DNA of 64,000 bases, taken from contig JANSWW010000011.1 in assembly GCA_024743275.1 (NCBI GenBank), forward strand, positions 1-64,000. The letters are read 5' to 3'. The position numbers and the translations under genes are program-made. Below the pieces are notes generated by a model. That model was not told where the DNA came from and searched no databases. It was given only the letters and a program-made list of their open reading frames with translations. Each line of letters starts with the position of its first letter. Position 1 is the stretch's first letter. Source of the stretch: Alphaproteobacteria bacterium (GTDB taxonomy: Bacteria > Pseudomonadota > Alphaproteobacteria > JANSWW01). Below, piece by piece: positions 35,719 through 54,088 of the stretch.

Positions 35719-36411
35719 TCAGACGGGCCGCTGCCCATCGCCCGCGCCCGCAAAACCTTCTTGCAAGGCTGCAAGCACGGTCTCCCGTTTCGTCTCCAGA
35801 TGCCGCTGCAGCACGGCCCCGAGGGCCGGTCCGTTCCGTGCCTCCAAAGCCTTCAGCATGTCCTCGTGTTCGCCCATCGCCCGGTCCCAGAGGGCGCCGT
35901 CCATCTCCGCCTCGAAGCGGATGCCGGCGACCCGGGCGTCGAGGGCGCCGTGCAGGCGGGTAAGGGTCGGGCTGTCGGCCAGACGCAGTAGATGGTCGTG
36001 GATTTCCCGGTTGAGCCGGTGATAGGTCGCCCGGTCGCGCCGCCGCCAGGCCGCCGCCATCTGGTAGTGGAGCGCCCGGACATCGTCGATGTCGGCATCG
36101 GTCGCCTTGGCCGCGGCCCGTGTTCCGGCGAGACCTTCCAGCGCGCCCATGACCGGGAAGAGATCGTCGATCTCCGACTCGCTGACCAGCGGCACCCGCG
36201 CGCCGCGGTTCGGCAGCACCTCGATCAGGCCTTCCTGGGCCAGAAGCTTCAGCGCCTCCCGCAATGGCGTGCGGGAAACGCCGATCTCGGTGCTGAGCTC
36301 CTGCTCCTTCAGCCGTTCGCCCGGACGCAGGCGCCCGCTGCCGAGCAGGCGGCGCAGATGGGTGACCGCCTTGTCGGTGGCGGAGACGGGAAAGGCCTCG
36401 ACCTCAGCCAT
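35719..36411 (-). CDS. GntR-family transcriptional regulator (FadR/FCD subfamily)
   Basis: A 230-residue repressor/activator. The N-terminal winged helix has LKEQELSTEIGVSRTPLREALKLLAQEGL, here broken as ELSTEIGVSRTPLREAL (about 38-55). The C-terminal FCD ligand domain (about 80-215) holds likely metal/ligand His residues in NREIHDHLLRL and MGEHEDMLKAL. It overlaps the upstream dehydrogenase gene by 8 bases, so it is co-transcribed and probably autoregulates. The twin TTGCATGCAA palindromes before the dehydrogenase are its most likely operators. The effector may be a 2-hydroxy acid. Confidence 0.92.
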   Translation of the reverse strand: MAEVEAFPVSATDKAVTHLRRLLGSGRLRPGERLKEQELSTEIGVSRTPLREALKLLAQEGLIEVLPNRGARVPLVSESEIDDLFPVMGALEGLAGTRAAAKATDADIDDVRALHYQMAAAWRRRDRATYHRLNREIHDHLLRLADSPTLTRLHGALDARVAGIRFEAEMDGALWDRAMGEHEDMLKALEARNGPALGAVLQRHLETKRETVLAALQEGFAGAGDGQRPV

Positions 36412-39348: not shown

Positions 39349-39422
39349 TTGCATGCAAAAATATCGGGCGCTATTCCCTTTCGCAAGGGCGAAAACCGGA
39401 TTGTTTTCAGAATTGCATGCAA
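39349..39422. promoter_or_regulatory. Twin palindromic operators and promoter of the ydiJ-gntR operon
   Basis: TTGCATGCAA occurs twice as a perfect 10-bp palindrome, at 39349-39358 and 39413-39422, with 13 shared bases (GAATTGCATGCAA) and centres 64 bases apart. Between them, reading on the minus strand, TTGCGA (39386-39381) and TATTTT (39363-39358) form a sigma-70 promoter with a 17-base spacer. The near palindrome overlaps the -10, and the far one lies upstream. This suits repression by the GntR protein, possibly with looping. Confidence 0.7.
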
Positions 39423-39435
39423 TAATCGCCAGACG

Positions 39436-40968
39436 TCACTCCGCCCAGGTGCGGTAGGTCCGGGCCGCCAGATCGAATTCGAGAACACGGTGATTGTTGC
39501 TGTCGCTGACCAGGAGCCGGTCCGGCCCGTCGGCCCAGAGGCCGGCTGGTTCGGCGAGCGGCAGGCAGAGATCGTCCTGACAGGAAAACCCGTCATCGAG
39601 ATCGTCGACATGGGAGCGGTCGAGGTCGATCACCCGGACGGCGTTGTTATAGCTGTCGGCGACCAGAAGGCGGCCGACCTCGCCGACGCCGGGCCACCAG
39701 GCAACGCCCAGGGGATGCTGGAATCGGGCCTTGTCGATCCGGGCGTTGACATGGCCGAAATCGAAAAGACCGGCGCCGACCAGGGTCTTGACCGAGGGGG
39801 CGTCGCCGAGCGAAAGCGCGCGGATTGAGGAGGTCTCGCTGTCGGCGAAGAACAGAAGGCCGGTGGAGGGATGTAGGGCGAGGCCGCTCGGCTGGGCCAA
39901 TGTCGCCTCCTTGATTTCGCCGTCGGTGATCGCCTCGGCCCCGGTGCCGGCGAGTACGGCCACGCTTTCGTCCTCAAGGCGCAGACTCAGAAGCTGATGG
40001 GTCCCGGCATTGGCGATGTAGATCTCACCGGTCTTCGGGTTGAGCTCCAGATCCCAGGGGCTGGCCAGCGCGGTCTCGCCGCCGTCGGACCGCACCTTGT
40101 GGGGCAGGCCGCGCCGGCCGGTGCCGGCCAGGGTGGTGACGGCGCCGGTGGCGAGTCCGATGCGACGGACGGCATGGTTGCCGGTGTCGGCGACATAGAT
40201 CGCGTCCTCGGCGGCGATCAGTCCCTGGGGCGCGTTGAAACCGGCCTCGTTGGCGGCGCCGTCGCGGAACCCGGCCTGGCCGTCGCCATAGCGGGCGATC
40301 TCGGTGCCGTCATCCTCCAGCAGGACGATCTGATGATGGCCCGGATCGGCCAGCGCCCAGCGCTTCTCCGACCCCGGAACCGGCTTGATTTTGCCCGGGA
40401 AGGAGAAACGGGTCTCCGGCGCGGTTTCCACCGGGATCTCCAGCGGTCGCGGCATCATCCGGCCCTCGTCGTGGAACTCCTTGATCACCGCCTCGACGAG
40501 GGTCATGAGTGTGTCCGCATCGGGCTCGCCCGGCTGCTGGCCGAGCACATAGGCCTCGGGCGAGACGAAGACGAGCGTCGGCCAGGCCTTCACCGCATAT
40601 TGCCGCCACAGCTCCATCTTCGGGTCCTGGACCACCGGATGGGTGATGCCGTAGCGCCGGATCGCCTGCTTCAGATTGTCGAGGTCCTTCTCCGCCTCGA
40701 ATTTCGGGGAATGCACCCCGATGACCAGCACGTCGTCGGGGAAGGTCTCCTCGACCCGCTTCAGAGTCGGCAGCACGTGATAGCAATTGACGCAGCAATA
40801 GGTCCAAAAATCGAGGATCAGCAGCTTGCCGTCCGCGTCCGCGAGGGAGAGGGGGCGGTCGGTGTTGAGCCAGGTCAGGCCCTCCCGGTCGATCTCCGGC
40901 GCCCGCACGATTGGCTGCCCGTGGGGCTGCCCGTGGGGCTGATAGGCCGAATTGTCGTTATCGCTCAC
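39436..40968 (-). CDS. Thioredoxin-like / NHL-repeat protein (NHLRC2-like)
   Basis: A 510-residue fusion. The N-terminal ~150 residues are a thioredoxin fold with FWTYCCVNCYHVLPTL; the active pair is CVNC at about residues 59-62, the variant seen in NHLRC2-type proteins. The remainder is a six-bladed NHL beta-propeller, with blades marked by IYVADTGNHAVRRI, IYIANAGTHQLLSL and LLVADSYNNAVRVI. No signal peptide is seen, so it should be cytoplasmic. The start is GTG at 40968, 3 bases after the amidase stop. It is the last gene of the minus-strand peptidase operon. The N-terminus repeats PHGQPHGQ. Its partner is unknown. Confidence 0.9.
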   Translation of the reverse strand: MSDNDNSAYQPHGQPHGQPIVRAPEIDREGLTWLNTDRPLSLADADGKLLILDFWTYCCVNCYHVLPTLKRVEETFPDDVLVIGVHSPKFEAEKDLDNLKQAIRRYGITHPVVQDPKMELWRQYAVKAWPTLVFVSPEAYVLGQQPGEPDADTLMTLVEAVIKEFHDEGRMMPRPLEIPVETAPETRFSFPGKIKPVPGSEKRWALADPGHHQIVLLEDDGTEIARYGDGQAGFRDGAANEAGFNAPQGLIAAEDAIYVADTGNHAVRRIGLATGAVTTLAGTGRRGLPHKVRSDGGETALASPWDLELNPKTGEIYIANAGTHQLLSLRLEDESVAVLAGTGAEAITDGEIKEATLAQPSGLALHPSTGLLFFADSETSSIRALSLGDAPSVKTLVGAGLFDFGHVNARIDKARFQHPLGVAWWPGVGEVGRLLVADSYNNAVRVIDLDRSHVDDLDDGFSCQDDLCLPLAEPAGLWADGPDRLLVSDSNNHRVLEFDLAARTYRTWAE

Positions 40969-40971
40969 GGT

Positions 40972-42324
40972 TCAACCGTCCACGCGGATCACGGGCTCGA
41001 TCGCCCGTGCGACATCGATCAGGTGGGCGTCGCCGCCGGTCTCGCCCATCAGGAGGAAGCCCACCGGGGCCTCGCCGGGCGCGGTCGACGGGATGGTGAT
41101 CCCGCAGCGATCGAGGAAATTGCCGACGATCGTGTTGCGCAGGGCGAGGAAGTTGCGGTCGGTGAACCGTTCGGCGTCGTGGGCGACCTCGGCGATCGGC
41201 GGGGCGATCAGGGCGTTGCCCGGCATCACCACCGAATCGAAGATCCGGGTCTCGCGCCTGGACTGCGCGACGCAGGCGTTCCGCAGCCGCAGGGTCTCGA
41301 TATAGTCGGCGGCATTGCCCCAGCGTCCCGCCTCGATCCGGCTCAGGACCAGCTGGTCGAACTCGCCGGGCCGCGTATCGACCAGGTCGCGGAGGGTGGC
41401 GAAGCATTCGACGGCGGCGAGGCTGATCTTGTTACCGAGCTGGGGGATCTGTTTCAGCGTCTCGAAATCGAACTCGACGATCTCCGCGCCGGCGGCGGAT
41501 AGCCGGGAGAGGGCGGCCTCGAAGGCCACGGAGACCTCCGGGTCGAGATCGTCCAGGACATAGCCGCCACGCGGCACGCCGAGCCGCAGCCGGTTGACGG
41601 AGAGCGGCCTGGGCTCGCGGTCTTCGCCGGAGATCACCTGGTCGATCCGGTCGGCGCAGTCGACCCGGTGGGTCAGCGGGCCGAGGCTGTCGAGGGTGTG
41701 GGACAATGGGAAGGCGCCCTCGATCGGCACACGGCGCTGGGTCGGCTTGAGCCCGGTGATCCCGCAGAACGCCGCGGGCAGGCGGATCGATCCGCCGGTG
41801 TCCGAGCCGATGGCGGCGGCGGCCATGCCGTCGGTGACCGAGACCGCGGCCCCGGAGCTGCTGCCCCCCGGGATTCGGCCGGTTGCCCGGTCATAGGGAT
41901 TGCGCGGGGTGCCGTAATGGGGGTTGTAGCCGATCCCGGAGAACGCGAACTCGGTCATGTTGGTCCGCCCGACGATGACCGCCCCCGCCGCCCGCAGTCG
42001 GGCCACAACCGGCGCGTCCTCGCGCGCCGCGGGCTGATCCTTGCGGACCACCGATCCGGCGGTGGTGACGAAGCCCTTCTCGTCCAGGAGATCCTTTACC
42101 GAGATCGGGATGCCGCCGAGCGGACCGACCGGGATGCCGGCCTGACGCTGGGCGTCGATCGCCCGCGCGGTCGCGAGCGCCTTGTCGCGGTGGACAGTGA
42201 TGAAGGCCTTCCCGCCCTCGCCGGCGGGGTCCTCGATCCGGGCCAGGCAGGCTTCGGTCAGCGCTTCGGAGGTGGTGGCGCCGCTGTCGAGGTCGGCGAT
42301 GAGATCTGCGATCGGTTTGGTCAT
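40972..42324 (-). CDS. Amidase signature family protein
   Basis: A 450-residue amidase of the GatA/AtzF group, which hydrolyses amide bonds with a Ser-cisSer-Lys triad. Seen are the lysine in PISVKDLLDEKG (about residue 72), the Gly/Ser-rich PGGSSSGAAVSVTDG (about 145-160), and GSDTGGSIRLPAAFCGI with the nucleophile region. It is not the tRNA amidotransferase subunit by context, since no gatB/gatC is near. It lies between an M14-type peptidase gene (16-base gap) and the thioredoxin/NHL gene, in an operon that looks built for breaking down peptides or amides. Confidence 0.9.
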   Translation of the reverse strand: MTKPIADLIADLDSGATTSEALTEACLARIEDPAGEGGKAFITVHRDKALATARAIDAQRQAGIPVGPLGGIPISVKDLLDEKGFVTTAGSVVRKDQPAAREDAPVVARLRAAGAVIVGRTNMTEFAFSGIGYNPHYGTPRNPYDRATGRIPGGSSSGAAVSVTDGMAAAAIGSDTGGSIRLPAAFCGITGLKPTQRRVPIEGAFPLSHTLDSLGPLTHRVDCADRIDQVISGEDREPRPLSVNRLRLGVPRGGYVLDDLDPEVSVAFEAALSRLSAAGAEIVEFDFETLKQIPQLGNKISLAAVECFATLRDLVDTRPGEFDQLVLSRIEAGRWGNAADYIETLRLRNACVAQSRRETRIFDSVVMPGNALIAPPIAEVAHDAERFTDRNFLALRNTIVGNFLDRCGITIPSTAPGEAPVGFLLMGETGGDAHLIDVARAIEPVIRVDG

Positions 42325-42340
42325 GTCTATCCGGGAAAGG

Positions 42341-43429
42341 TTATGCGTTGGCGAGGCCGTCGATGGCCCGGCGGATGATTTGGAAAGAGCGCAGGGAGAT
42401 CATCTCCATCCAGTCGCGCTCGTCCGGGAAGAAGGTCTGTCGCATCCGGGCCTTCATCTCCGTCCATTGGGGCGAGCCCGGCTCGCTTTTGAGATGGAGC
42501 CAGTTGTCGCCGATCAAGGAGGTCAGAACATAGGGCACCGGATAGGTGCCGTATTCCGCCGTCATCGACGTGATCTGTGCAGTGCCGGCCTCACTGGCCA
42601 GACCGTCGTGGATCGTGCCGGTTAGCGCCGCCGAGGTCGAGTTGCCGGCCTCCGGCGAGCTGACACCCTCGCCATACCAAGCCCTGACCCGCTCGAAATC
42701 CGGATCGCCCGGGGCGCCGTGGGTGATCAGGTCGCAGGCGCCATAGGGGCCGAGGCCGGTGTGATAGTCGATGAAGCCGACATGGCCGGCGCCGCGCACG
42801 AAGTCGCGCACGATCCGCCGGAAGGTCTCGTTGGACCAGGTCGGCTTACGGCCGCCGAAGAAAATGCCGTCCTCGTGGGCGTATTGACCCCGGCTGAGCG
42901 CCGACTGAAGGGAAAAGACCCCGTGCTCGGCCGCATACCGTTCGAACGTCTCGCCCAGCCCCATCTGGGCGTCCGCGTCCCAGCGCCCGGGAATGAGATG
43001 AGGGTGCAGGTCCCCATAGTTCTCGTTCTCCGGCAGGGCCTGAGCGAAATCCATGAAGTTCCGGTTGAGGTCCACATTGTCCTCGGTGACCCGGCGGATC
43101 CAGGCGAACCCGTGCGGATTGATCGCGTGAACCAGCACGATCTTGAGGCCTTCGGGCAGGGTCCGGTAGCGGCCGGAGCGTAGCCAGCCGACCAGGGCCC
43201 CGGAGCCGCAGAAACCCTCCCCGCCGTGGACCCCGGAGTTCAACAGCAGCACCCGGTCCGCCTTGGCGTCGCCGAGAACCGCGACGTCGGTCTGAAGGAT
43301 TTCGCCCTCGGGTCCTTCCTTCGGGTTGGTGAAAGTGGTGATGGCCGCGTTCGCCGTCCGGGCCGCCTCGCGGAACTTGTCGCGGGCATGGGCGTAGTCG
43401 CTGGCGAAATAGTGGGTCCAGTCTTCCAC
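42341..43429 (-). CDS. M14-type zinc carboxypeptidase-like protein (DUF2817)
   Basis: A 362-residue protein of the DUF2817 group in the M14 metallopeptidase superfamily. The zinc-binding HxxE motif is in LNSGVHGGEGFCGS (about residues 65-78), the NVDLNRNFMDF segment matches the substrate Arg region, and the third zinc ligand is probably the His of FIDYHTGLGPYG. The catalytic Glu is likely in SMTAEYGTYPVP. The start is GTG at 43429, with GGAGAGG upstream; no signal peptide is seen. It is next to the M24 gene and the amidase, so cytoplasmic peptide or amino-acid-conjugate cleavage is likely. Confidence 0.87.
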   Translation of the reverse strand: MEDWTHYFASDYAHARDKFREAARTANAAITTFTNPKEGPEGEILQTDVAVLGDAKADRVLLLNSGVHGGEGFCGSGALVGWLRSGRYRTLPEGLKIVLVHAINPHGFAWIRRVTEDNVDLNRNFMDFAQALPENENYGDLHPHLIPGRWDADAQMGLGETFERYAAEHGVFSLQSALSRGQYAHEDGIFFGGRKPTWSNETFRRIVRDFVRGAGHVGFIDYHTGLGPYGACDLITHGAPGDPDFERVRAWYGEGVSSPEAGNSTSAALTGTIHDGLASEAGTAQITSMTAEYGTYPVPYVLTSLIGDNWLHLKSEPGSPQWTEMKARMRQTFFPDERDWMEMISLRSFQIIRRAIDGLANA

Positions 43430-43448
43430 GGTTGTTTTCCTCTCCGGA

Positions 43449-44636
43449 TCAGTGAACGGTGACGGAGGCGAGGTCTTTCTTGGCCCTGGTCAGCACCTCG
43501 GGTGTGTCGCCGACGACCACCGTGTCGTCAATCCGGAACCCGCCGATGCCGAACAGATAGATCCCGGGTTCGGCGGAGTACACCTCGTTCTCCATCAGCG
43601 GACGGTGACAGAAGGCCATGTCGTCCGGATGTTCGTGGCCCGCCATGCCGACGCCGTGGCCGGTTCGGTGGAGGATGTTCTCTCCGAAGCCGGCCTTCTC
43701 GATCACCGACTGGGCCGCCGCGTCGATACCGGAGACGGGCTTGCCCGTGACCATCGCCTCGATGGCGGCCTCGTTGGCGCCGAGAGCGGCGTGGAAGGCC
43801 CGCGCCTGCTCCGGGCTCGGTTTGCCGCAGAACATGGTCCTTTCGTTCTCGATCACCATGCCGTTCAAGCGCGGAATGACGATGTTGACGAGGCCGTGGC
43901 CTGCTTCGATGCGGGCGCCGGTCGGCGCGCCGTTGCCGTGGGGCGATGCGGACGCGGGGCCGGAAAGGGTCCAGGTCCGGAGCATTTCGAGATGGCTGCC
44001 GGGGAAGCGCTTGGCCGCCTCCTCATAGGCGAGCGCGGCCATCGACGCGTCGAGTTCCTGCACCACCCGGCCCGGGCGGATATTCTCGAGATAGCGGTCC
44101 TGGATCCAGTCCGAGAAGTCCGCCGCTTGGCGCATCAGGCCCAATTCCTCCGGGTGCTTCACCAGCCGCATCTCGCGCATCGGCTTGAGGGCCGTCTCGA
44201 CGGTGAGGCCGGGCAACAGGCCGGCGGGCTTCGCCATCGGACCGATCACATCGCAGCCGATCCGGGTCCGGTGCAGGCCCTTGTCCTTCAGGACGGAGGC
44301 GGCCATGTCGGCCCATTGGCCGACCAACCAGGTCCGGTTGGTGACCCGCGGATGCTCGGCGTAGAAGGTGATGTCGGAACACCAGAGTTGCTGGCGTTCC
44401 GCGGCGAAGCGCAGATGGCTGGTGGAGAGTTCGCACATCAGCATGAAGGGCTCGCCATGGCGCGGCACGATGGCCGCCACCGGCCGTTCCCAACCCTGGA
44501 CGTCGAGATGGAAGTTGGTCGCGAACTGGAAGAAATAGGGCGAGGTGAAGGCCAGCGCCTCATACCCCTCCCGGTCCATCAGGGCGTCCATCATACCCTT
44601 GCGGTAGTCGAAAACGGCACGGGAGAGAAAGCTCAT
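43449..44636 (-). CDS. M24-family metallopeptidase (Xaa-Pro dipeptidase / ectoine hydrolase-like)
   Basis: A 395-residue protein with the two-domain creatinase/prolidase layout. The N-terminal domain is about 1-160. The pita-bread catalytic domain has LHRTGHGVGMAGHEHPDD (His ligand), VYSAEPGIYLFG (Glu ligand) and IDDTVVV. Some expected metal-binding Asp residues are not obvious in the stretch GHGLVNIVIPRLNGMV, so it may be a variant such as ectoine hydrolase or a non-peptidase creatinase homolog. The ATG at 44636 overlaps the toxin stop (TGATG), giving direct translational coupling to the upstream toxin-antitoxin pair. A GTG at 44639 is possible. Confidence 0.87.
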   Translation of the reverse strand: MSFLSRAVFDYRKGMMDALMDREGYEALAFTSPYFFQFATNFHLDVQGWERPVAAIVPRHGEPFMLMCELSTSHLRFAAERQQLWCSDITFYAEHPRVTNRTWLVGQWADMAASVLKDKGLHRTRIGCDVIGPMAKPAGLLPGLTVETALKPMREMRLVKHPEELGLMRQAADFSDWIQDRYLENIRPGRVVQELDASMAALAYEEAAKRFPGSHLEMLRTWTLSGPASASPHGNGAPTGARIEAGHGLVNIVIPRLNGMVIENERTMFCGKPSPEQARAFHAALGANEAAIEAMVTGKPVSGIDAAAQSVIEKAGFGENILHRTGHGVGMAGHEHPDDMAFCHRPLMENEVYSAEPGIYLFGIGGFRIDDTVVVGDTPEVLTRAKKDLASVTVH

Positions 44637-44935
44637 CACTGGGGTCCTTCTTCTTGTTTCGGATCGTGATTTCGGGCGCCGTGGAGGACGCGGAGGATTT
44701 CTACCGCCTCGGAGCGTGGCCGGTATACAAGGATGTAGGGCAACCCAGCCACGACCCGCTCGCGAGTCCCGGCTATCGTGCCTTCGCGGCCGATGTCAGG
44801 GAAGTCTCTCAGACGATTGGCCGACTCCAGGATGCGGCGCGCGACCATTCGTGCGGCGTTTGGGTTGTCGCTTCGGATGAAACTGCGGATCTCGGTCAAG
44901 TCATCAGCGGCGGACCGTGACCAGATCAGTCGCAT
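44636..44935 (-). CDS. parE: ParE/RelE-superfamily toxin
   Basis: A 99-residue toxin-like protein. It shows the typical RIWSRSAADDLTEIRSFI-type N-terminus (here LIWSRSAADDLTEIRSF), a middle RILESANRLRDFPDIGREG and the C-terminal strand ERVVAGLPYILVYRP with EILRVLHGARN. This is the ParE pattern (gyrase poison) more than the RelE ribonuclease pattern, but the two cannot be separated safely by eye. It overlaps the antitoxin gene by 10 bases, and its stop overlaps the next peptidase start. Confidence 0.87.
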   Translation of the reverse strand: MRLIWSRSAADDLTEIRSFIRSDNPNAARMVARRILESANRLRDFPDIGREGTIAGTRERVVAGLPYILVYRPRSEAVEILRVLHGARNHDPKQEEGPQ

Positions 44936-45162
44936 GTCGGTGGTGGGCGTTCATCATCCTTGCCCCAACTCTGCAGCCAAACGGCGATTTGCTGTTCCGA
45001 GAAAACGCGTTCGGCCTCGACATCGGCGATACCTCGACGGACGCCCTCCTCCGCCGCGATCCGGCGGGCCTGTTCTTCGACAATGGCCGCCAATTCGGAC
45101 TGTCCAGCCTCGGACAGCTGCGGGGCAACGCGCTCGACAGTTTCTTTCAGAACGTTGGACAT
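44926..45162 (-). CDS. parD: Antitoxin of a type II toxin-antitoxin pair (ParD-like)
   Basis: A 78-residue acidic protein directly upstream of the ParE-like toxin. The N-terminal part is helical and charged (LKETVERVAPQLSEAGQSEL), and the C-terminal RVFSEQQIAVWLQSWG would wrap the toxin. The gene has no ribosome site. Its only promoter signal is TATACT on the minus strand (45175-45170), 7 bases before the ATG, so the mRNA may be leaderless. The ParD name rests on position; sequence similarity to canonical ParD is weak. Confidence 0.75.
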   Translation of the reverse strand: MSNVLKETVERVAPQLSEAGQSELAAIVEEQARRIAAEEGVRRGIADVEAERVFSEQQIAVWLQSWGKDDERPPPTCD

Positions 45163-45231
45163 ACCGCGAGTATAGCAGACCCCCGGCTCGAGTCAGGGCG
45201 TAAAGGGATGGTGGCGTAAAGGGGCGCTCGT

Positions 45232-45828
45232 TCAGCCGCGCCACAGATAGCGCAGGCCGTGCCATCCGGGATCGAAACCGAAATCGTCCGGATCTAGGGT
45301 GAAATGTCGTGCGGCGGGACGCCCGGCCTTCCCGGCAATAGTTTCCGCATGCCGGAAACCCAGTTTCCGATGGATCTTCAGCGAGGCCCCGTTGGTCTCC
45401 AGAACCTGAGACCGGATCCGCTCCACACCGCGACGGGCGAAATGGACATGAATCATCGCGCCGACCGCCTCGGTGGCGACGCCGCGACCCCAACTAGGAC
45501 GGCCCACCCAAAAACCGAGAACGGGAATTTCGTCATCACAATTCCGTGTCCCCGCCGAAAGATCGACGATGCCGATGAGCTCATTTTCGCTTTCGACGGC
45601 CAATGGCCCGGCCGGGCCGGACGTTCCGGGATGTATCCTTTCGGATATAAATTGCTCCGCGTTTTCAAGGTGGTAGGGATGCGGAATGGTTGCGGTCATC
45701 GCACTGATCTCGGGCGTTTGCAGTAGCGCCGTCATTCGTGCCGCATCCGACATTTTCAACGGACGCAGGCAAAGGTTGTCGGTGGCCAGGAACGGGCCTT
45801 CGGAGGTCTGCATTGCGATCATGTCCAC
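45232..45828 (-). CDS. GNAT acetyltransferase, RimJ/RimL type
   Basis: A 198-residue N-acetyltransferase of the GNAT superfamily. It begins with the family pattern LCLRPLKMSDAARM. The acetyl-CoA pyrophosphate loop is in WVGRPSWGRGVATEAVGAMI (about 110-130), and the C-terminal FETNGASLKIHRKLGFRH-like stretch (here LETNGASLKIHRKLGF) is typical of ribosomal-protein acetyltransferase relatives. Start may be at 45828 or at the Met codons 45822 and 45813. It is the same direction as the toxin-antitoxin pair but separated from it by 69 bases. Confidence 0.88.
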   Translation of the reverse strand: MDMIAMQTSEGPFLATDNLCLRPLKMSDAARMTALLQTPEISAMTATIPHPYHLENAEQFISERIHPGTSGPAGPLAVESENELIGIVDLSAGTRNCDDEIPVLGFWVGRPSWGRGVATEAVGAMIHVHFARRGVERIRSQVLETNGASLKIHRKLGFRHAETIAGKAGRPAARHFTLDPDDFGFDPGWHGLRYLWRG

Positions 45829-45939
45829 GCTCTTATTGACGGGTTTTATGCAACCCGGCTATCACGAGGAGGGTAACCCATATGCACAGAATGCATGGGT
45901 CTGAAAAACCAAGCGAACAGCTTTTGGAGAGGTTTCACA

Positions 45940-45974
45940 ATGCGTAAATCAAGTGGGCGCAAACTGTTTTGGGG
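45940..45974 (+). other. Apparent frameshift in the signal peptide of the ABC binding protein
   Basis: The best start by signals is ATG 45940: GGAGAGG at 45926-45932 is seven bases upstream, and it encodes MRKSSGRKL, an ideal signal-peptide N-terminus. That frame is then lost at CTGTTTTGGGGCC (45964-45976). Removing one T from TTTT (45967-45970) joins it to FGAAFIAAVLAVGTGVADA and the rest of the binding protein. As written, the downstream frame can only start at GTG 45953, which lacks the basic N-region and a ribosome site. Confidence 0.8.
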
Positions 45975-47542
45975 CCGCGTTCATCGCCGCGGTTCTGGCG
46001 GTCGGGACGGGCGTTGCCGACGCCAAGACCTTCCGCTATTCGACGACGGGGGACATCCTTGGTCTCGACCCCTACACCAACAATGAGGGTCCGACCAACA
46101 CGATGAAGTCCAACATCTACGAAGGGCTCATCCACCGGTCCTACGACCTCTCGCTGTCGCCCGGTCTGGCGACCGAGTGGACGCAGGTCGATCCCCTGAC
46201 CTGGGAATTCACCCTGCGTCAAGGCGTTAAGTTCCATAACGGGAACGACTTCACGGCCGACGACGTGCTCGTCTCCTATGAGCGGATCAAGCAACCGGCC
46301 TCCAACATGACCTTCGTCGTCGCCTCGATCGACAAGGTCGAGAAGGTCGACGACTACAAGGTTCGGATCGTCACGAAGTATCCGGATCCGACCCTACTCC
46401 TCAACATGCCGAACTTCTGGATCATGGATAAGGAGTGGCTCGAGGCGAACAACGCGATGGATATCGCCGAGGGCGCTTCGGTGTCGACCTACGCCAACCT
46501 CAACACCAATGGCACCGGCCCCTTCAAGGTCGTCGAATGGCAGCCGGACACCCAGGTGGTCCTGGAGCCGAACGCCGATTGGTGGGGCGAGCCGCAGCAC
46601 AACCTGACCCAGGCGATCTTCAAGCCGATCGGCAACGACGCTACCCGTGTCGCGGCTCTGCTGTCCGGCGAAATCGACCTGATGTATCCGGTGCCGCTGC
46701 AGGATATTCCGCGGGTCAACGACGATCCCACCTCGACCGTCATGGAAGGCCCGGAACTCCGGACCATCTTCCTCGGCTTCGACCAGCATCGCGACGAGCT
46801 GATGGACATGCCGGGCTCCGGCAAGAACCCGTTCAAGGACGTCCGTGTCCGGAAGGCCTTCTATCAGGCGATCGATATCAACCTGATCCAGAAGCGCGTG
46901 ATGCGCGGCGCCTCCCGTCCGGCCGGTCTGATGATCGCCCCGGGCATCAACGGCTATCCGAAGGACCTCGACGTTCGCTTCCCCTATGATCCGGAAGCGT
47001 CCAAGCAGCTCCTCGCCGAAGCCGGTTATCCGGACGGTTTCCCGGTCACGCTGGACTGCCCGAACGATCGCTACGTGAACGACGAAGAGATCTGCAAGGC
47101 CGTCGTCCCGATGCTCAAGCGCGTCGGCATCGACATCAAGCTCAACGCTCAGACCAAGTCGCTGCACTTCCAAAAGATCGGCCGCTCCGGCACGCCGTGG
47201 GAAACCAGCTTCTTCATGCTGGGCTGGACCCCGGGGTCCTATGACGCGCACAATCCGCTCATGCAGCTCATGACCGTCGACGGTGAGGGCCAGGGCACCT
47301 GGAACTCCGGCCGCTTCTCGCACCCGCGGGTCGAGGAACTCACCGACATGATCGCCGGTGAAACCGACGTCGATAAGCGGAACGCGATGATCGCGGAAGC
47401 GATGGAGATCCATCGCGACCAGGTCGGCCACATCACGCTGCACCAGCAGGCCCTGGCCTGGGGTGTCCGCTCCGACACGGTCGCCGACGTCAAGCAGCGC
47501 CCGCAGAACGATGTGGACCTGCGCTACGTCACCATGAAGTAA
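45953..47542 (+). CDS. ABC transporter periplasmic binding protein, peptide/dipeptide type (family 5)
   Basis: A 529-residue solute-binding protein of the DppA/OppA family, the capture component of the importer encoded just downstream. After a hydrophobic signal (AAFIAAVLAVGTGVADA) the mature part begins KTFRYSTTGDILGLDPYTNN. The family patterns LTWEFTLRQGVKFHNGNDF and RKAFYQAIDINLIQKRVM are present. The coordinates follow the open frame from GTG 45953, but the true start is probably ATG 45940 with a one-base frameshift between (see separate entry). A double hairpin follows the stop, which can let this gene be expressed above the permeases. Confidence 0.92.
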   Translation: MGANCFGAAFIAAVLAVGTGVADAKTFRYSTTGDILGLDPYTNNEGPTNTMKSNIYEGLIHRSYDLSLSPGLATEWTQVDPLTWEFTLRQGVKFHNGNDFTADDVLVSYERIKQPASNMTFVVASIDKVEKVDDYKVRIVTKYPDPTLLLNMPNFWIMDKEWLEANNAMDIAEGASVSTYANLNTNGTGPFKVVEWQPDTQVVLEPNADWWGEPQHNLTQAIFKPIGNDATRVAALLSGEIDLMYPVPLQDIPRVNDDPTSTVMEGPELRTIFLGFDQHRDELMDMPGSGKNPFKDVRVRKAFYQAIDINLIQKRVMRGASRPAGLMIAPGINGYPKDLDVRFPYDPEASKQLLAEAGYPDGFPVTLDCPNDRYVNDEEICKAVVPMLKRVGIDIKLNAQTKSLHFQKIGRSGTPWETSFFMLGWTPGSYDAHNPLMQLMTVDGEGQGTWNSGRFSHPRVEELTDMIAGETDVDKRNAMIAEAMEIHRDQVGHITLHQQALAWGVRSDTVADVKQRPQNDVDLRYVTMK

Positions 47543-47555
47543 GATATCCAAGTAT

Positions 47556-47628
47556 GGCGGCAGGGGGTTTATTTCCCCTGCCGCCGATGCTAAGGCAGCC
47601 CGTGCCGAGCGCACGGGCTGCGCTTTTT
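47556..47628 (+). terminator. Two hairpins after the binding-protein gene, second with U-run
   Basis: Hairpin one pairs GGCGGCAGGGG (47556-47566) with CCCCTGCCGCC (47575-47585). Hairpin two pairs GCAGCCCGTGC (47595-47605) with GCACGGGCTGC (47611-47621) over a CGAGC loop and is followed by GCTTTTT. The second is a good intrinsic terminator. Placed between the binding protein and its permeases, the pair should lower readthrough and protect the upstream mRNA, a common way to keep binding protein in excess. Confidence 0.85.
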
Positions 47629-47815
47629 CAAACCGGGCGGAACAGTCCGGATCCATAACATGGCGGGGAAGAAGCGGCCGTATTTCTGGTCAAGGCCTTG
47701 CTTTGCCTTACATCACCGAAATGGCCTCCGCATCATCCACAAAGGCCCTGTTGCCGAGGCTGCTCACCGGACGAGTTTCCGAGCGTCCGACCGTAGATAG
47801 AGAGAACTCAGGGGC

Positions 47816-48796
47816 ATGATCGCGTTCATCATCCGACGGTTGTTGCAGTCCCTTCTGGTCATGGGGACCGTTGCCTTTATCGCCTTCTCGCTGTTCAACT
47901 TCGTGGGCGATCCGGTCAACAACATGGTCGGTCAGGAAGCCACTGAAGCCGAGCGGGAGTACATCCGCCAGCTTCTCGGCCTCGACCAACCCTTCTACAT
48001 TCAATTCATGCGCTTCGTCGGCAATGTGCTGCAGGGCGATTTCGGCCAGTCCTACAGGCTCGGTCAGCCGGTCCTGAACGTGCTTGGCGACCGGGTTCCC
48101 GCCACGCTGGAGCTCGTCTTCGTCGCCGCCGTGATGGCCTTGGTGATCGGCGTTCCGATGGGGGTCTACACCGGCCTCAAGCGGTATGCGATCTCCTCCA
48201 AGCTGATGCTGACGATCTCGCTGATCGGCGTTTCGCTGCCGACCTTCGTCATCGGCATCATGCTGATCCTGGTGTTCTCGGTCTGGCTCAATTGGCTGCC
48301 AAGTTTCGGCAGGGGGCAGACCGTCAATGTGGGCTGGGACAGCAACCTCTTCTCGCTTGAGGGCTGGAAGTCGATGATCATGCCGGCGATCACGCTGTGC
48401 CTGTTCCAGCTCACCCTTGTGATGCGCCTGGTCCGGGCCGAGATGCTCGAGGTGCTGCGGACGGACTATGTGAAGTTCGCCCGCGCCCGCGGCCTGTCCA
48501 ACCGGGCGGTCCATTTCGGCCATGCGCTGAAGAACACGCTGATGCCGGTGATCACCATCACCGGCCTTCAGGTCGGCGGCCTGATCGCGTTCGCGATCAT
48601 CACCGAGACGGTGTTCCAGTGGCCGGGCATGGGGCTTCTGTTCCTCCAGGCCATCCAGTTCGTCGATATTCCGGTGATGGCGACCTATCTGCTGCTGGTC
48701 GCGCTCGTCTTCGTGATCATCAACCTGATCGTTGACATGACCTATTACTTCGTTGATCCGCGCCTTCGCACCGAAGGCAAGGGCGGCGGTCACTAG
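47816..48796 (+). CDS. ABC transporter permease, DppB type
   Basis: A 326-residue inner-membrane permease with about six segments. It begins MIAFIIRRLLQSLLVMGTVA, the typical DppB start. The loop that docks on the ATPases, the EAA motif, is seen as KFARARGLSNRAVHFGHALKN, broken here into RARGLSNRAVHFGHALKNTL at about 222-241. The 273-base gap before it holds the two hairpins and no clear promoter, so it is read through from the binding-protein gene. Confidence 0.93.
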   Translation: MIAFIIRRLLQSLLVMGTVAFIAFSLFNFVGDPVNNMVGQEATEAEREYIRQLLGLDQPFYIQFMRFVGNVLQGDFGQSYRLGQPVLNVLGDRVPATLELVFVAAVMALVIGVPMGVYTGLKRYAISSKLMLTISLIGVSLPTFVIGIMLILVFSVWLNWLPSFGRGQTVNVGWDSNLFSLEGWKSMIMPAITLCLFQLTLVMRLVRAEMLEVLRTDYVKFARARGLSNRAVHFGHALKNTLMPVITITGLQVGGLIAFAIITETVFQWPGMGLLFLQAIQFVDIPVMATYLLLVALVFVIINLIVDMTYYFVDPRLRTEGKGGGH

Positions 48797-48816
48797 GGCG
48801 AAGTGAGAGACTGAAA

Positions 48817-49821
48817 ATGGCTGATTCGAAAACCATCGAGAAACCCATCGTCGAAGAGCATATGGGTCTGTTCGCCCGAATAGGCGACAGCTTCCGCCGC
48901 TTCCTCGACGGGGATATCTTCTACTCCTTCATCCACTCGCCGATCACGGTGATCGCCTTCGTGGTTACGGTGATCTGCTTCGTGCTGGCGGCGTTCGCGC
49001 CCTGGCTGGCGCCGCACAACACCAACGACATCGCGACGCTGCTGCTTGACAACGCCGAACTGCCGCCGTTCTGGAGTTCCTATACCGCCTCCTGGGGTGA
49101 GGAACTGCACGGCCGGACCGAGTTTCTGCTCGGCACCGATCCGGACGGCCGGGACGTGCTTTCGGGCATCATCTTCGGCATGCAGGTCAGCCTGATCGTC
49201 GGCTTCGGCTCGGTGATCCTGGCCATGGCGATCGGCATTACGCTGGGCCTGATCTCCGGCTATATCGGGGGCAAGACCGATTCCGTCATCATGCGGATCG
49301 CCGACATCCAGCTCTCCTTCCCGGCCATCCTGGTCGCCCTCCTGCTGTTCGGCGGCATCAAGTCGGTCCTTCCGCCGGCCGAGCGTCAGGACCTGGCCAT
49401 CTGGGTGCTGATCCTGGCGATCGGCGTGTCCAACTGGGTTCAGTTCGCCCGGACCGTGCGGGGCTCGACCATGGTCGAGAAGTCCAAGGAATACGTGCAG
49501 GCGGCCCGGGTCATCGGTCTGCATCCGATCCTGATCATGATCCGCCATGTGCTCCCGAATGTGATGGGGCCGGTACTGGTCATCGCGACCATCAACCTGG
49601 CGCTCGCCATCATCACGGAGGCGACGCTGTCCTTCCTCGGCGTCGGCGTTCCGCCGACCGAGCCGTCGCTTGGCACTCTGATCCGGGTCGGGCAGCAGTA
49701 CCTGTTCTCCGGGTTCTGGTGGATGACGATCTTCCCGGCGCTGGCCCTCGTCGTGCTGGCGCTGTCTGTGAACCTGTTGGGGGACTGGCTGCGCGACGCC
49801 CTCAACCCGAAACTCCGTTAA
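48817..49821 (+). CDS. ABC transporter permease, DppC type
   Basis: The second permease, 334 residues. It has a long cytoplasmic N-terminus (about 45 residues), then hydrophobic segments, the LGTDPDGRDVLSGIIFG pattern of DppC proteins, and the EAA docking loop EYVQAARVIGLHPILIMIRH at about 227-246. It lies 20 bases after the DppB-type gene and 20 bases before the first ATPase gene, in one operon. Confidence 0.94.
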   Translation: MADSKTIEKPIVEEHMGLFARIGDSFRRFLDGDIFYSFIHSPITVIAFVVTVICFVLAAFAPWLAPHNTNDIATLLLDNAELPPFWSSYTASWGEELHGRTEFLLGTDPDGRDVLSGIIFGMQVSLIVGFGSVILAMAIGITLGLISGYIGGKTDSVIMRIADIQLSFPAILVALLLFGGIKSVLPPAERQDLAIWVLILAIGVSNWVQFARTVRGSTMVEKSKEYVQAARVIGLHPILIMIRHVLPNVMGPVLVIATINLALAIITEATLSFLGVGVPPTEPSLGTLIRVGQQYLFSGFWWMTIFPALALVVLALSVNLLGDWLRDALNPKLR

Positions 49822-49841
49822 GGTAGAAGGACGCACTTCCG

Positions 49842-50852
49842 ATGGCAGATCCTCTGCTGAAGGTCGAAAACCTTCGTATCGAGTTCCCGACCCGGCGTGG
49901 CACGCTGGTCGCGGTGGACGATATCTCGCTTCACATCAATAAGGGCGAAGTGCTGGGCGTGGTCGGTGAATCCGGCGCTGGCAAGTCGCTGACCGGGGCG
50001 TCGATCATCGGGCTTCTGGAGCCCCCCGGTCGCATCGCGGCGGGACAGATCCTGCTCGATGGCAAGCGGATCGACAATCTTCCCTATGAGAAGATGCGCC
50101 AGATCCGCGGCCGTGAGATCGGGGCCATCTTCCAGGACCCGCTGACCAGCCTCAACCCGCTCTATTCGGTCGGCTTCCAGCTGATCGAGACGATCCAGAC
50201 GCACCTGCCGATGGACAAGCAGCAGGCCCGCCAACGGGCCATCGACCTGCTTGCGGAGGTCGGCATCCCGGCCCCGGAACGGCGGATCGACCATTACCCG
50301 CACCAGTTCTCGGGCGGCATGCGGCAGCGGGTGGTGATCGCGTTGGCGCTCTGTGCCAACCCGAAGCTGATCATCGCCGACGAGCCGACCACGGCGCTCG
50401 ACGTGTCGATCCAGGCTCAGATCATCGCGCTGTTGAAGCGGTTGTGCCGCGATCACGGAACGGCGGTGATGCTGGTGACCCACGACATGGGCGTGATCGC
50501 CGAGACCGCCGACCGGGTCGCCGTGATGTATGCGGGGCGCATCGCCGAAATCGGTCCGGTGAAGGAGGTGATCAAGGACGGCAAGCATCCCTATACCCAC
50601 GGCCTGATGGGCTCGATCCCGATCCTCGGCCACGATACGGAGAAACTGACCCAGATCGAGGGCGCCATGCCGCGCCTGACCGACATCCCGACGGGATGCG
50701 CTTATAACCCGCGCTGTCCGAAGGTGTTCGACCGATGCTATCGCGACCGGCCCGACTTGTTGGACGCCGGAACCACGCGGGCGGCCTGCTGGCTCTACGA
50801 CGACGACGCTAAGGCCGCCGCGGCCGTTACCGGGGAGACCGCCCATGTCTGA
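49842..50852 (+). CDS. ABC transporter ATP-binding protein, DppD type
   Basis: A 336-residue ATPase powering the importer. Walker A GESGAGKS is at residues 42-49, the signature FSGGMRQR near 157, Walker [14 protein letters not shown] near 175, and the switch His in LVTHDMGV. The C-terminal oligopeptide-type extension has a Cys-rich patch ([15 protein letters not shown], about 286-300) that binds an Fe-S cluster in characterised relatives. Its stop overlaps the DppF-type gene by 8 bases. Confidence 0.95.
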
Positions 50853-51930
50853 GGTCGCCGAAAAGATGTCCCCGGATCCGACCAAGATCGGCGCCGATGC
50901 CGAAACCGTTCTGGACGTGCAGGGGCTCAAGCGTTACTTCGACGTCTCGCCGCCCTTCCTCAACCGCCTGATCGAGCGCACCGACAAGGCCTTTCTGAAG
51001 GCCGTCGACGGGATCGATTTCCGGATCGAACGGGGGGAGACCTTCTCCCTGGTGGGTGAATCCGGCTGCGGTAAGTCCACCGTCGCGCGCCTGGTGGTCG
51101 GGCTTTATTCCCCGACCGGCGGGAGCGTGACCTTCGAGGGCCAGGAAATCGGCGGTCTCTCGCGCAAGGAACTGGTGCCGGTGCGCCGCCGGATGCAGAT
51201 GATCTTCCAGGATCCCTATGCCAGCCTCAATCCGCGTTGGCGGGTCGAGGACATCATCGCCGAGCCGATCCGCTTCTTCGGTCTGACGAACAACAACAAC
51301 GAGACCCTGCAGCGGGTGGGCGAGCTGCTCCAACTCGTCAATCTGTCGCCCAAGGACATGGAGAAATATCCCCACGAGTTCTCCGGCGGTCAGCGGCAGC
51401 GGATCTCGATCGCGCGGGCGCTCGCCAGCGAGCCCGACTTCCTGGTCTGTGACGAGCCCACCTCGGCCCTCGACGTGTCGGTTCAGGCCCAGATCCTCAA
51501 CCTGATGAAGGATCTGCAGAAGCGGCTCAACCTGACCTATCTGTTCATCAGCCACAATCTGGCGGTCGTCTATCACATGTCCGATCACATCGGGGTCATG
51601 TATCTCGGCCGCTTGGCGGAGGTGGCGCCGGCCAAGACTCTGTTCGAGAAGCCGCGGCACCCCTATACCAAGCTTCTGCTGGACACGATCCCGGACCTGG
51701 ACATGACTGGGCGCGAGCGGGTTCCGGTGGCCGGCGAGGTGCCCAACCCGATCAATCCTCCCAGCGGATGTGCCTTCCACCCGCGCTGTCCCTTCGCCAA
51801 TGATCGCTGCAAGGCCGAACGGCCGGAGCCGATCAAGATGCCGGACGGGGCGGCGGTCGCCTGCCACGGCGTCGAGGAAGGGCGCATCCCGGAAGGGCCG
51901 ATCAGCGGGATTGCCTCCCAGGATATCTAA
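50845..51930 (+). CDS. ABC transporter ATP-binding protein, DppF type
   Basis: The second ATPase, 361 residues. Walker A GESGCGKS is at 71-78, the signature [16 protein letters not shown] near 178, and Walker [14 protein letters not shown] near 200. A Cys-containing C-terminus ([15 protein letters not shown]) matches that of DppD. An insert ([13 protein letters not shown], about 38-50) before Walker A is typical of DppF members. It completes a self-sufficient importer with the genes at 45953-50852. Confidence 0.95.
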
Positions 51931-51954
51931 GGCCCGCAAGCAAATGGGTATCCC

Positions 51955-52866
51955 ATGATCCTGGTGTTCGGGTCGGCCATCGTCGACATCGGTTTCGAGG
52001 CGGACCATCTGCCTCGTGCCGGTGAGACGGTGCTCTGCCCGGACGTCAGCCTGAGGCCCGGCGGGAAGGGGGCCAATCAGGCCGTCGCCGCCGCTCGCGC
52101 GGGGGCGGATGTCGTTTTCGTCGGCGCCGTGGGGAAGGACCCCCTTGGCGATCTTCTCCTCGACAGTCTGGCGGCGGAGAATATTGATTTAAACGATGTT
52201 CTTCGGGCCGATGCGCTGACCGGTGTGGCCGCGGTGGCTGTGGATAAGGTTGGGGAAAATCAGATCCTTGTGGGGGGCGGTGCCAATACCACCCTCCGTG
52301 CCGATCAAGTGCCGGATCGCCATTTGACGCCGGCCACCACGGTCGTCATGCAGCTTGAGGTTCCGGTTCCGGAAATCACGGCACTTGCTGCGCGAGCGAA
52401 AGCCAATGGCGCGAAAGTGGTTCTAAATCTCGCCCCCGCACAGCGGGTTTCTCCGGTATTGCTGGAGACGGTCGACGTTCTGATCATGAACGAGGTCGAA
52501 GCGGGTACGCTGAGTGGCGAGGCTGGCCAACCCCTTGCTTTGGCACGAAATCTTTCGAATCGGCATCACCTGGTGGCCGTCGTCACCCTCGGCGGGGATG
52601 GGGCGATCGCGGTCGCCAAGGAGCAGATCTGGAGCGTCGGAGCGCTGCCAGTGCGTGTGGTCGATACGGTCGGCGCGGGAGATGCCTTTGTCGGCGTCAT
52701 GGCCGCCATGTTGGACCGGAAGGCCCCCTTGCCAACCGCTCTGCACCGGGCGAGTGTCGCGGCGGGGATGGCCTGTGAGGCAGGTGGGGCACAGGCCGCT
52801 TTGCCCATCGACCTGGATGTGGATGGACGGCTCGGCGATCTGCCACCGCCCCGCCTTGTGACCTGA
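51955..52866 (+). CDS. rbsK: PfkB-family sugar kinase, ribokinase-like
   Basis: A 303-residue cytoplasmic kinase. The sugar-binding signature LRPGGKGANQAVAAARAG is at about residues 36-53, and the ATP/anion-hole signature with the catalytic Asp is in VVDTVGAGDAFVGVM near 236-250. Both match ribokinase. It starts 24 bases after the ATPase gene, so it may share the importer transcript. Third-position G/C is lower here than around it (for example 52180-52210 with AATATTGATTTAAACG), which hints at acquisition from elsewhere or weaker expression. Ribose transport genes are absent. Confidence 0.87.
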   Translation: MILVFGSAIVDIGFEADHLPRAGETVLCPDVSLRPGGKGANQAVAAARAGADVVFVGAVGKDPLGDLLLDSLAAENIDLNDVLRADALTGVAAVAVDKVGENQILVGGGANTTLRADQVPDRHLTPATTVVMQLEVPVPEITALAARAKANGAKVVLNLAPAQRVSPVLLETVDVLIMNEVEAGTLSGEAGQPLALARNLSNRHHLVAVVTLGGDGAIAVAKEQIWSVGALPVRVVDTVGAGDAFVGVMAAMLDRKAPLPTALHRASVAAGMACEAGGAQAALPIDLDVDGRLGDLPPPRLVT

Positions 52867-52906
52867 AATCGTTAACCTAGCTTCTGAAATGTAAGGGAAA
52901 TTCAAA

Positions 52907-54088
52907 ATGACCATGTTGTTTTCCGGCGGCGCGGTGATCGATGGCGACGGCAACCGGCTCGACGGGTATGCGGTCCTGGTCGCGGAGGAGCGGATCGAGC
53001 GGGTCGCACCCCTGGCCGAGTTCGAAGGCTTCGCCGGCAAGGTTGTCGACACGACCGGACAGACGCTGTTGCCGGGGCTGGTCGATTGCCATGTCCATCT
53101 CATGCTGGGCGGGGAGGGCGATCCGGGCTCGGCGGCGGACAAGATGACGCCCTCCGCCCTGGTCATGCGGGCGCTGCGCTTCGCCCAGACCTCTCTCAAG
53201 GCCGGGGTGACCGGGCTGCGCGATTGCGGCGGCCGGGACCATCTCGAATTCGGTGTCCGGGACGCCTGTAATCGGGGCGAACAGCTTGGCCCGACCATCC
53301 GGGCGGCCGGTCGGATGATCTGCATGACCGGCGGTCACGGCAACCGCTACGGTCGGGTTGCGGACGGTGTCGACGACGTGGTGAAGGCGGTCCGCGAGCA
53401 GGTTCATGCCGGCTGCGACCTCATCAAGATCATGGCCACGGGCGGCGTGATGACCCCGGGCGTCAATCCGGAGGATGCCCACTATTCGCCGGAGGAGATC
53501 GCCGCCGGCATCAAGGAGGGCCACCGCTTCCACAAGCATTCCGCCAGCCATGCACAGGGCACGGCCGGTATCCTGAACGCGGTCCGGGGCGGCGTCGATT
53601 CCATCGAACACGGCATCTTCATGGACGATGCCTGTATCGAGGAGATGATCGCGGCGGGCACCACCCTGGTCCCGACCCTGGCGGCGGTCGACAACATCGT
53701 CCGGATGAAGGATCACGGCATTCCGCCCCACGCGGTGGAAAAGGCCGTGCGCTGTCATATCGCTCACAAGGCGTCGGTGAAGGCGTTCTACGAGGCCGGC
53801 GGCAAGATCGCCATGGGGACCGACGCCGGCACCCCGTATAACAAGCACGGCGAGAATCCGCGTGAGCTTTCTCTGATGGCCGATCTCGGCATGGATCCGA
53901 TGGACATCATCACCTTCTCGACCCGAAACGGCCATCAGCTGATGCGCAATGAGGCCCGAGGCCTCGTGAAGCAGGGCTACTTCGCCGATTTGCTGCTCGT
54001 CGACGGCGATCCGCTGGCCGATATCCAAAAGGTCGCCGACACGGCCAACCACCGCATGGTGGTCAAGAACGGGATCGTGGTGCATTAG
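52907..54088 (+). CDS. Metal-dependent amidohydrolase (imidazolonepropionase / prolidase-like)
   Basis: A 393-residue amidohydrolase-superfamily enzyme. The metal-binding HxH is in LVDCHVHLMLGG (His 62 and 64). The lysine bridge is in DLIKIMATGGVM (about 180), further His ligands in SASHAQGTAG and DSIEHGIFMDD, and the Asp in MGTDAGTPYNKHG (about 304). This subgroup includes carboxypeptidases that cleave Xaa-Arg or Xaa-Pro dipeptides, fitting the peptide importer upstream. It is 40 bases after the sugar kinase and closes the operon. Confidence 0.9.
   Translation: MTMLFSGGAVIDGDGNRLDGYAVLVAEERIERVAPLAEFEGFAGKVVDTTGQTLLPGLVDCHVHLMLGGEGDPGSAADKMTPSALVMRALRFAQTSLKAGVTGLRDCGGRDHLEFGVRDACNRGEQLGPTIRAAGRMICMTGGHGNRYGRVADGVDDVVKAVREQVHAGCDLIKIMATGGVMTPGVNPEDAHYSPEEIAAGIKEGHRFHKHSASHAQGTAGILNAVRGGVDSIEHGIFMDDACIEEMIAAGTTLVPTLAAVDNIVRMKDHGIPPHAVEKAVRCHIAHKASVKAFYEAGGKIAMGTDAGTPYNKHGENPRELSLMADLGMDPMDIITFSTRNGHQLMRNEARGLVKQGYFADLLLVDGDPLADIQKVADTANHRMVVKNGIVVH

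What the first reader, a model, noticed from the sequence alone, without database searches (positions are those of the whole stretch)
39436..45162. Toxin-antitoxin pair translationally fused to a peptidase/amidase/thioredoxin operon
The order antitoxin, ParE-like toxin, M24, M14-type peptidase, amidase, thioredoxin/NHL is packed on one strand, with start-stop overlaps or short gaps throughout. Toxin and M24 share TGATG. TA pairs are usually free-standing; here the TA promoter would drive four metabolic enzymes, or the enzymes may be cargo stabilised by it. It could also be a degradative pathway with an addiction lock.
Basis: partly seen in the sequence, partly recalled or inferred. Interest (0 to 1): 0.62.

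Follow-up and report, generated by a model that had tools for sequence, protein, structure and literature searches.

The report
Toxin-antitoxin pair inserted into peptide operon
A toxin-antitoxin gene pair really does sit at the head of a set of peptide-digesting enzyme genes, overlapping the first of them, but related bacteria carry the core transporter and enzyme genes without it, so it looks like a passenger that dropped into the control region of an older gene cluster, which is a known habit of such pairs.

Summary
On the minus strand run antitoxin (44926-45162), ParE-family toxin (44636-44935), M24-like protein (43449-44636), DUF2817 M14-like hydrolase, amidase and thioredoxin-NHL. Toxin and M24 share TGATG; the other gaps are 3-19 nt. 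"Translationally fused" is too strong: M24 has its own Shine-Dalgarno sequence, inside the last toxin codons.

The TA pair is not a conserved part of the pathway. In four genomes of one genus the orthologous locus is SBP5 transporter <-> DUF2817 (thioredoxin-NHL next in two), with no GNAT, TA, M24 or amidase gene. None of 26 M24 relatives elsewhere has the TA pair or the other enzymes nearby. GNAT, antitoxin and toxin have low GC3 (0.65-0.69; enzymes 0.85-0.91). The GNAT start lies 7 nt from the conserved SBP5 -35 box, so the old divergent promoter of the enzyme genes was displaced. The only promoter-like site seen for the run is at the antitoxin start.

Best reading: a GNAT-TA segment landed in the divergent control region of a peptide uptake and digestion cluster, whose enzymes now lie downstream of a TA promoter. 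This matches relA-mazEF-mazG, dinB-yafNO-yafP and higBA-higX: ordinary in kind, new in place.

The parts
45232..45828 (-). GNAT acetyltransferase gene (PF13302), upstream co-directional neighbour, probably arrived with or beside the TA pair
   Evidence: Pfam 7e-26; GC3 0.658 against 0.85-0.91 in the enzyme genes; no ortholog at this place in relatives
45169..45196 (-). promoter-like site, CTGACT-16-TATACT with TG before the -10, ending 6 nt before the antitoxin ATG
   Evidence: consensus scan; no Shine-Dalgarno sequence before the antitoxin, so a leaderless or near-leaderless antitoxin mRNA is inferred
45197..45223 (-). two exact direct repeats CCCTTTACGCC, 16 nt apart, just upstream of the -35: candidate operator (inferred)
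   Evidence: the only two copies in the window
44926..45162 (-). antitoxin, 78 aa; C-terminal half like ParD/CopG-type antitoxins, N-terminal part not recognisably ribbon-helix-helix
44636..44935 (-). ParE/RelE-superfamily toxin, 99 aa, full length
   Evidence: PF05016 2.5e-19; closest solved structures are mostly ParE or plasmid-stabilisation proteins
43449..44636 (-). M24-family protein with its own Shine-Dalgarno AAGAAGGA lying in the toxin's last codons
42341..43429 (-). DUF2817 (M14/AstE-like putative zinc hydrolase), core gene of the ancestral cluster
   Evidence: PF10994 3e-115; 57% identical orthologs divergent from SBP5 in four genomes
40972..42324 (-). amidase (amidase-signature family), not at this place in orthologous loci
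39436..40968 (-). thioredoxin-like plus NHL-repeat protein, directly after DUF2817 in two orthologous loci
45836..45864 (+). conserved SBP5 promoter TTGACG-17-CTATCA; its -35 is 7 nt from the GNAT start codon and marks the edge of the replaced sequence
   Evidence: same hexamers and spacing at a similar place in three orthologous loci
45953..54088 (+). divergent peptide ABC transporter (SBP5, two permeases, two ATPases), ribokinase-like gene, Xaa-Pro-dipeptidase-like amidohydrolase

Best explanation
The core is a peptide uptake and digestion cluster: a divergent peptide ABC transporter with an amidohydrolase on one side, DUF2817 and thioredoxin-NHL on the other. M24 and amidase were added to the enzyme side. 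A low-GC3 segment carrying GNAT and a ParE-type TA pair landed between the SBP5 promoter and M24 and displaced the divergent promoter. With no terminator seen after the toxin gene, the TA operon runs into M24, so the enzymes are now distal genes of a TA-headed transcript. The toxin is expected to be held by its antitoxin, and enzyme output would follow TA autoregulation plus any read-through from GNAT. Shown: gene order, overlap, absence of the TA pair in relatives, composition contrast, conserved SBP5 promoter edge. Inferred: order of events, co-transcription, toxin activity, autoregulation.
For: Orthologous loci in four genomes of one genus have SBP5 (70-73%) divergent from DUF2817 (57%), with thioredoxin-NHL (about 60%) next in two, and no GNAT, TA, M24 or amidase there. 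26 M24 relatives (25 at 56-64% identity, one distant) lack the TA pair, DUF2817, amidase and thioredoxin-NHL nearby, as does a further one in G028; by coordinates no PF05016 hit is adjacent to M24 in the 21 such genomes searched. GC3 is 0.658/0.646/0.690 for GNAT/antitoxin/toxin against 0.851-0.905 for the four enzymes. Within 7.2 kb, one of only two promoter-like sites lies exactly at the antitoxin. The literature describes TA pairs as terminator-less insertions with co-transcribed downstream genes (PMC5120126; PMC7167474; PMC13384398).
Against: No genome of the same family is held, so the empty site is seen only at 57-80% protein identity and the insertion cannot be dated. Low GC3 alone is weak for small genes: 24% of called genes of 60-120 aa in this genome are at or below 0.69. 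No target-site duplication or mobile-element gene was found. Promoter matches are only consensus matches. M24 could have arrived after or with the TA pair.
Confidence: 0.75

Rival explanations
1. The TA pair and the enzymes form a selected functional unit: antitoxin loss under starvation derepresses the shared promoter, slows growth and raises peptide-scavenging enzymes together.
For: Exact toxin/M24 overlap, no M24 promoter seen, only promoter-like site at the antitoxin, direct repeats upstream of its -35; the neighbourhood is a peptide transport and hydrolysis cluster.
Against: Arrangement found in a single genome; absent from all M24 relatives and four orthologous loci. No recognisable DNA-binding domain in the antitoxin.
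Confidence: 0.1
2. The TA pair works as an addiction lock that protects the catabolic genes from loss.
For: An apparently intact toxin and antitoxin pair is physically linked to the genes.
Against: Relatives keep the core cluster without it. The genome holds two further PF05016 genes elsewhere, so such pairs are not peculiar to the cluster. No sign that the cluster is mobile or unstable.
Confidence: 0.04
3. The TA pair is a remnant with no activity; the enzymes are transcribed from a promoter overlapping the SBP5 promoter, through GNAT and the TA genes.
For: The same strand runs from GNAT through thioredoxin-NHL, with no minus-strand terminator-like site found between GNAT and the antitoxin; chromosomal TA pairs often decay (PMC7167474).
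Against: Toxin is full length over the Pfam model (1-88 of 89) and the antitoxin frame is open; a promoter-like site lies at the antitoxin start.
Confidence: 0.11

Closest known systems
higBA-higX of Caulobacter crescentus (PMC13384398)
   Same: TA pair of foreign composition inserted upstream of a conserved gene; empty site in relatives; the TA promoter now influences the downstream gene
   Different: HigBA is toxin-first and LexA-controlled, with a 42-bp gap to higX; here a ParE pair overlaps the first of four enzyme genes
dinB-yafNO-yafP and relA-mazEF-mazG of Escherichia coli (PMC7167474, PMC5120126)
   Same: type II TA inserted between genes of an existing operon, downstream gene co-transcribed, TA absent in other strains
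   Different: Spacers of 9 bp or more there, a 1-nt overlap (TGATG) here; the GNAT gene is upstream here, downstream (yafP) there
ParDE / ParE-family TA systems
   Same: canonical order antitoxin then toxin, ParE domain, antitoxin C-terminal half like partners of homologous toxins
   Different: Antitoxin N-terminus has no detectable ribbon-helix-helix domain; M24 gene directly downstream and overlapping

Membership tests
Type II ParE-family toxin-antitoxin system | toxin with ParE/RelE-superfamily domain | tested here: met
   PF05016 2.5e-19 over 1-88 of 89; PDB ParE relatives
Type II ParE-family toxin-antitoxin system | small antitoxin gene directly upstream, homologous to partners of related toxins | tested here: met
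   10-nt overlap; C-terminal half matches antitoxins beside homologous toxins in G296, G089 and others
Type II ParE-family toxin-antitoxin system | ribbon-helix-helix DNA-binding domain in the antitoxin (typical ParD) | tested here: inconclusive
   no Pfam or solved-structure match for the N-terminal part; no structure predicted
Type II ParE-family toxin-antitoxin system | toxicity, neutralisation, gyrase as target | not testable with these tools
   needs expression tests
TA insertion into an existing gene cluster | empty site in relatives with conserved flanking genes | tested here: met
   four orthologous loci without TA, flanking SBP5 and DUF2817 conserved; relatives are of another family, so the site is not base-exact
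TA insertion into an existing gene cluster | composition differs from flanking genes | tested here: met
   GC3 0.65-0.69 against 0.85-0.91; modest for genes this short
TA insertion into an existing gene cluster | downstream genes co-transcribed from the TA promoter | not testable with these tools
   only promoter-like site for the run is at the antitoxin; needs RNA data
M24 metallopeptidase (catalytic) | five metal ligands Asp-Asp-His-Glu-Glu | tested here: not met
   aligned with prolidase the first Asp is missing, the second is Glu263, the last Glu is Asp370; His327 and Glu356 kept; nearly invariant in 27 sequences

The most novel reading that the evidence does not exclude
The insertion rewired the enzyme genes: TA autoregulation now sets expression of a peptide-scavenging operon, so antitoxin breakdown in starvation both slows growth and turns on peptide digestion.
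Probability: 0.1. Interest if true: 0.55.

Novelty: new member of a known kind. Interest (0 to 1): 0.27.

Why it matters
It is a clean further example of a TA pair settling in the control region of a conserved metabolic cluster, at an unusually tight junction, in a lineage with no close relative held. It warns against reading gene adjacency to a TA pair as shared function, and gives a testable case of promoter replacement by a TA module.

Tried and rejected
A first genome-contig scan with the M24 protein found no relatives; an alignment of two sequences found 26. No RNA family, tRNA or defence-system model matched. Flanking repeats as insertion scars: only short chance-like repeats. GNAT as the toxin of a TacAT-type pair: considered and not favoured, because the antitoxin lies next to a ParE gene and the GNAT hit is PF13302; not tested further. 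ParE-M24 adjacency among the class-wide toxin hits: none in the 29 toxin loci examined. An ORF heuristic on those loci suggested that a coding-like gene starting within about 20 nt of the toxin stop is rare, but it is crude and carries no weight here. One Pfam call failed on a bad frame and was not repeated.

Full report
Observation. The six genes lie as described on the minus strand. Antitoxin 44926-45162 and toxin 44636-44935 overlap by 10 nt. Toxin and M24 share TGATG; the M24 start is ATG 44636, because the alignment with relatives begins at that methionine. M24 to DUF2817 is 19 nt, DUF2817 to amidase 16 nt, amidase to thioredoxin-NHL 3 nt. M24 has its own Shine-Dalgarno sequence AAGAAGGA eight bases before the ATG, inside the toxin's last codons, so coupling is possible but fusion is not shown.

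The TA pair. The toxin is a full-length ParE-family protein, with ParE and plasmid-stabilisation proteins among its nearest solved structures. The 78-aa antitoxin has no Pfam match. Its C-terminal half matches antitoxins adjacent to homologous toxins and CopG-type plasmid proteins. Its N-terminal part has no recognised DNA-binding domain. A promoter-like site with TATACT ends 6 nt before the antitoxin ATG, and two copies of CCCTTTACGCC lie just upstream of its -35. The genome holds two other PF05016 genes elsewhere.

The enzyme side and its transporter. Divergent from the run lies a peptide ABC transporter with SBP5, two permeases and two ATPases, followed by a ribokinase-like gene and an amidohydrolase close to Xaa-Pro dipeptidases. 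This makes a peptide uptake and digestion cluster the likely context; the substrate is not known.

Comparative test. The closest DUF2817 relatives, in four genomes of one genus, stand divergent from an SBP5 gene 70-73% identical to the window's, with the permeases, ATPases and amidohydrolase following in the same order. Thioredoxin-NHL follows DUF2817 in two of the four (L090, L093). None has GNAT, TA, M24 or amidase there. M24 relatives elsewhere (26 loci, 25 of them 56-64% identical, and one more in G028) have no TA pair, DUF2817, amidase or thioredoxin-NHL within the fetched flanks, some of which are cut short by contig ends. In two Rhodospirillales MAGs (L012, L015) M24 itself is divergent from a more distant SBP5 (31-34%). 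A PF05016 search of 25 genomes, 21 of them carrying M24 relatives, gave hits in 19 but, judged by coordinates, none adjacent to M24; one relative (L023) could not be searched and five others were not asked for.

Edge of the insertion. The SBP5 promoter TTGACG-17-CTA is shared with three orthologous loci at a similar distance from SBP5, and in the window its -35 lies 7 nt from the GNAT start codon. Sequence beyond it, which in relatives leads to DUF2817, is replaced by GNAT, TA and M24. GNAT, antitoxin and toxin have GC3 0.646-0.690, the enzymes 0.851-0.905. In 400 kb of this genome the median GC3 is 0.829, but 24% of called genes of 60-120 aa fall at or below 0.69, so composition supports the case only jointly with synteny.

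Interpretation. The simplest account is insertion of a GNAT-TA segment into a divergent control region, leaving the enzymes downstream of the TA promoter. Reviews state that transferred TA pairs carry a promoter but no terminator, that downstream genes are co-transcribed, and that insertions such as mazEF and yafNO lie in operons that are undisturbed bicistrons in other strains (PMC5120126; PMC7167474). In Caulobacter higBA is a likely foreign insertion upstream of the conserved gene higX (PMC13384398). The window is a new instance of this. Whether expression of the enzymes now follows TA regulation is untested.

Limits. No genome of the same family is held. Promoter, operator and order of events are inferences.

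Noticed in passing
43449-44636: The M24 protein and its relatives lack the canonical metal-ligand set (first Asp missing, second Glu, last Asp), with the replacements nearly invariant in 27 sequences; possibly a creatinase-like, non-peptidase M24 subfamily.
   Followed up: partly
45938-45990: An ATG at about 45938 (MRKSSGRKLF...) is in a different frame from SBP5, while orthologs begin MRKLFGA in frame; one extra T near CTGTTTTGGGG would explain it. Frameshift, assembly error, or a GTG start at 45953.
   Followed up: partly
51955-52866: Ribokinase-like gene between the ATPase and amidohydrolase genes, absent there in four orthologous loci, with GC3 0.704: perhaps another insertion.
   Followed up: partly
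39349-39358 and 39413-39422: Two perfect palindromes TTGCATGCAA, the only ones in the window (0.04 expected), before the FAD-linked oxidase gene and near a GntR/FCD regulator gene (35719-36411): candidate operators.
   Followed up: no
45197-45223: Two direct repeats CCCTTTACGCC upstream of the antitoxin promoter-like site, candidate operator.
   Followed up: no
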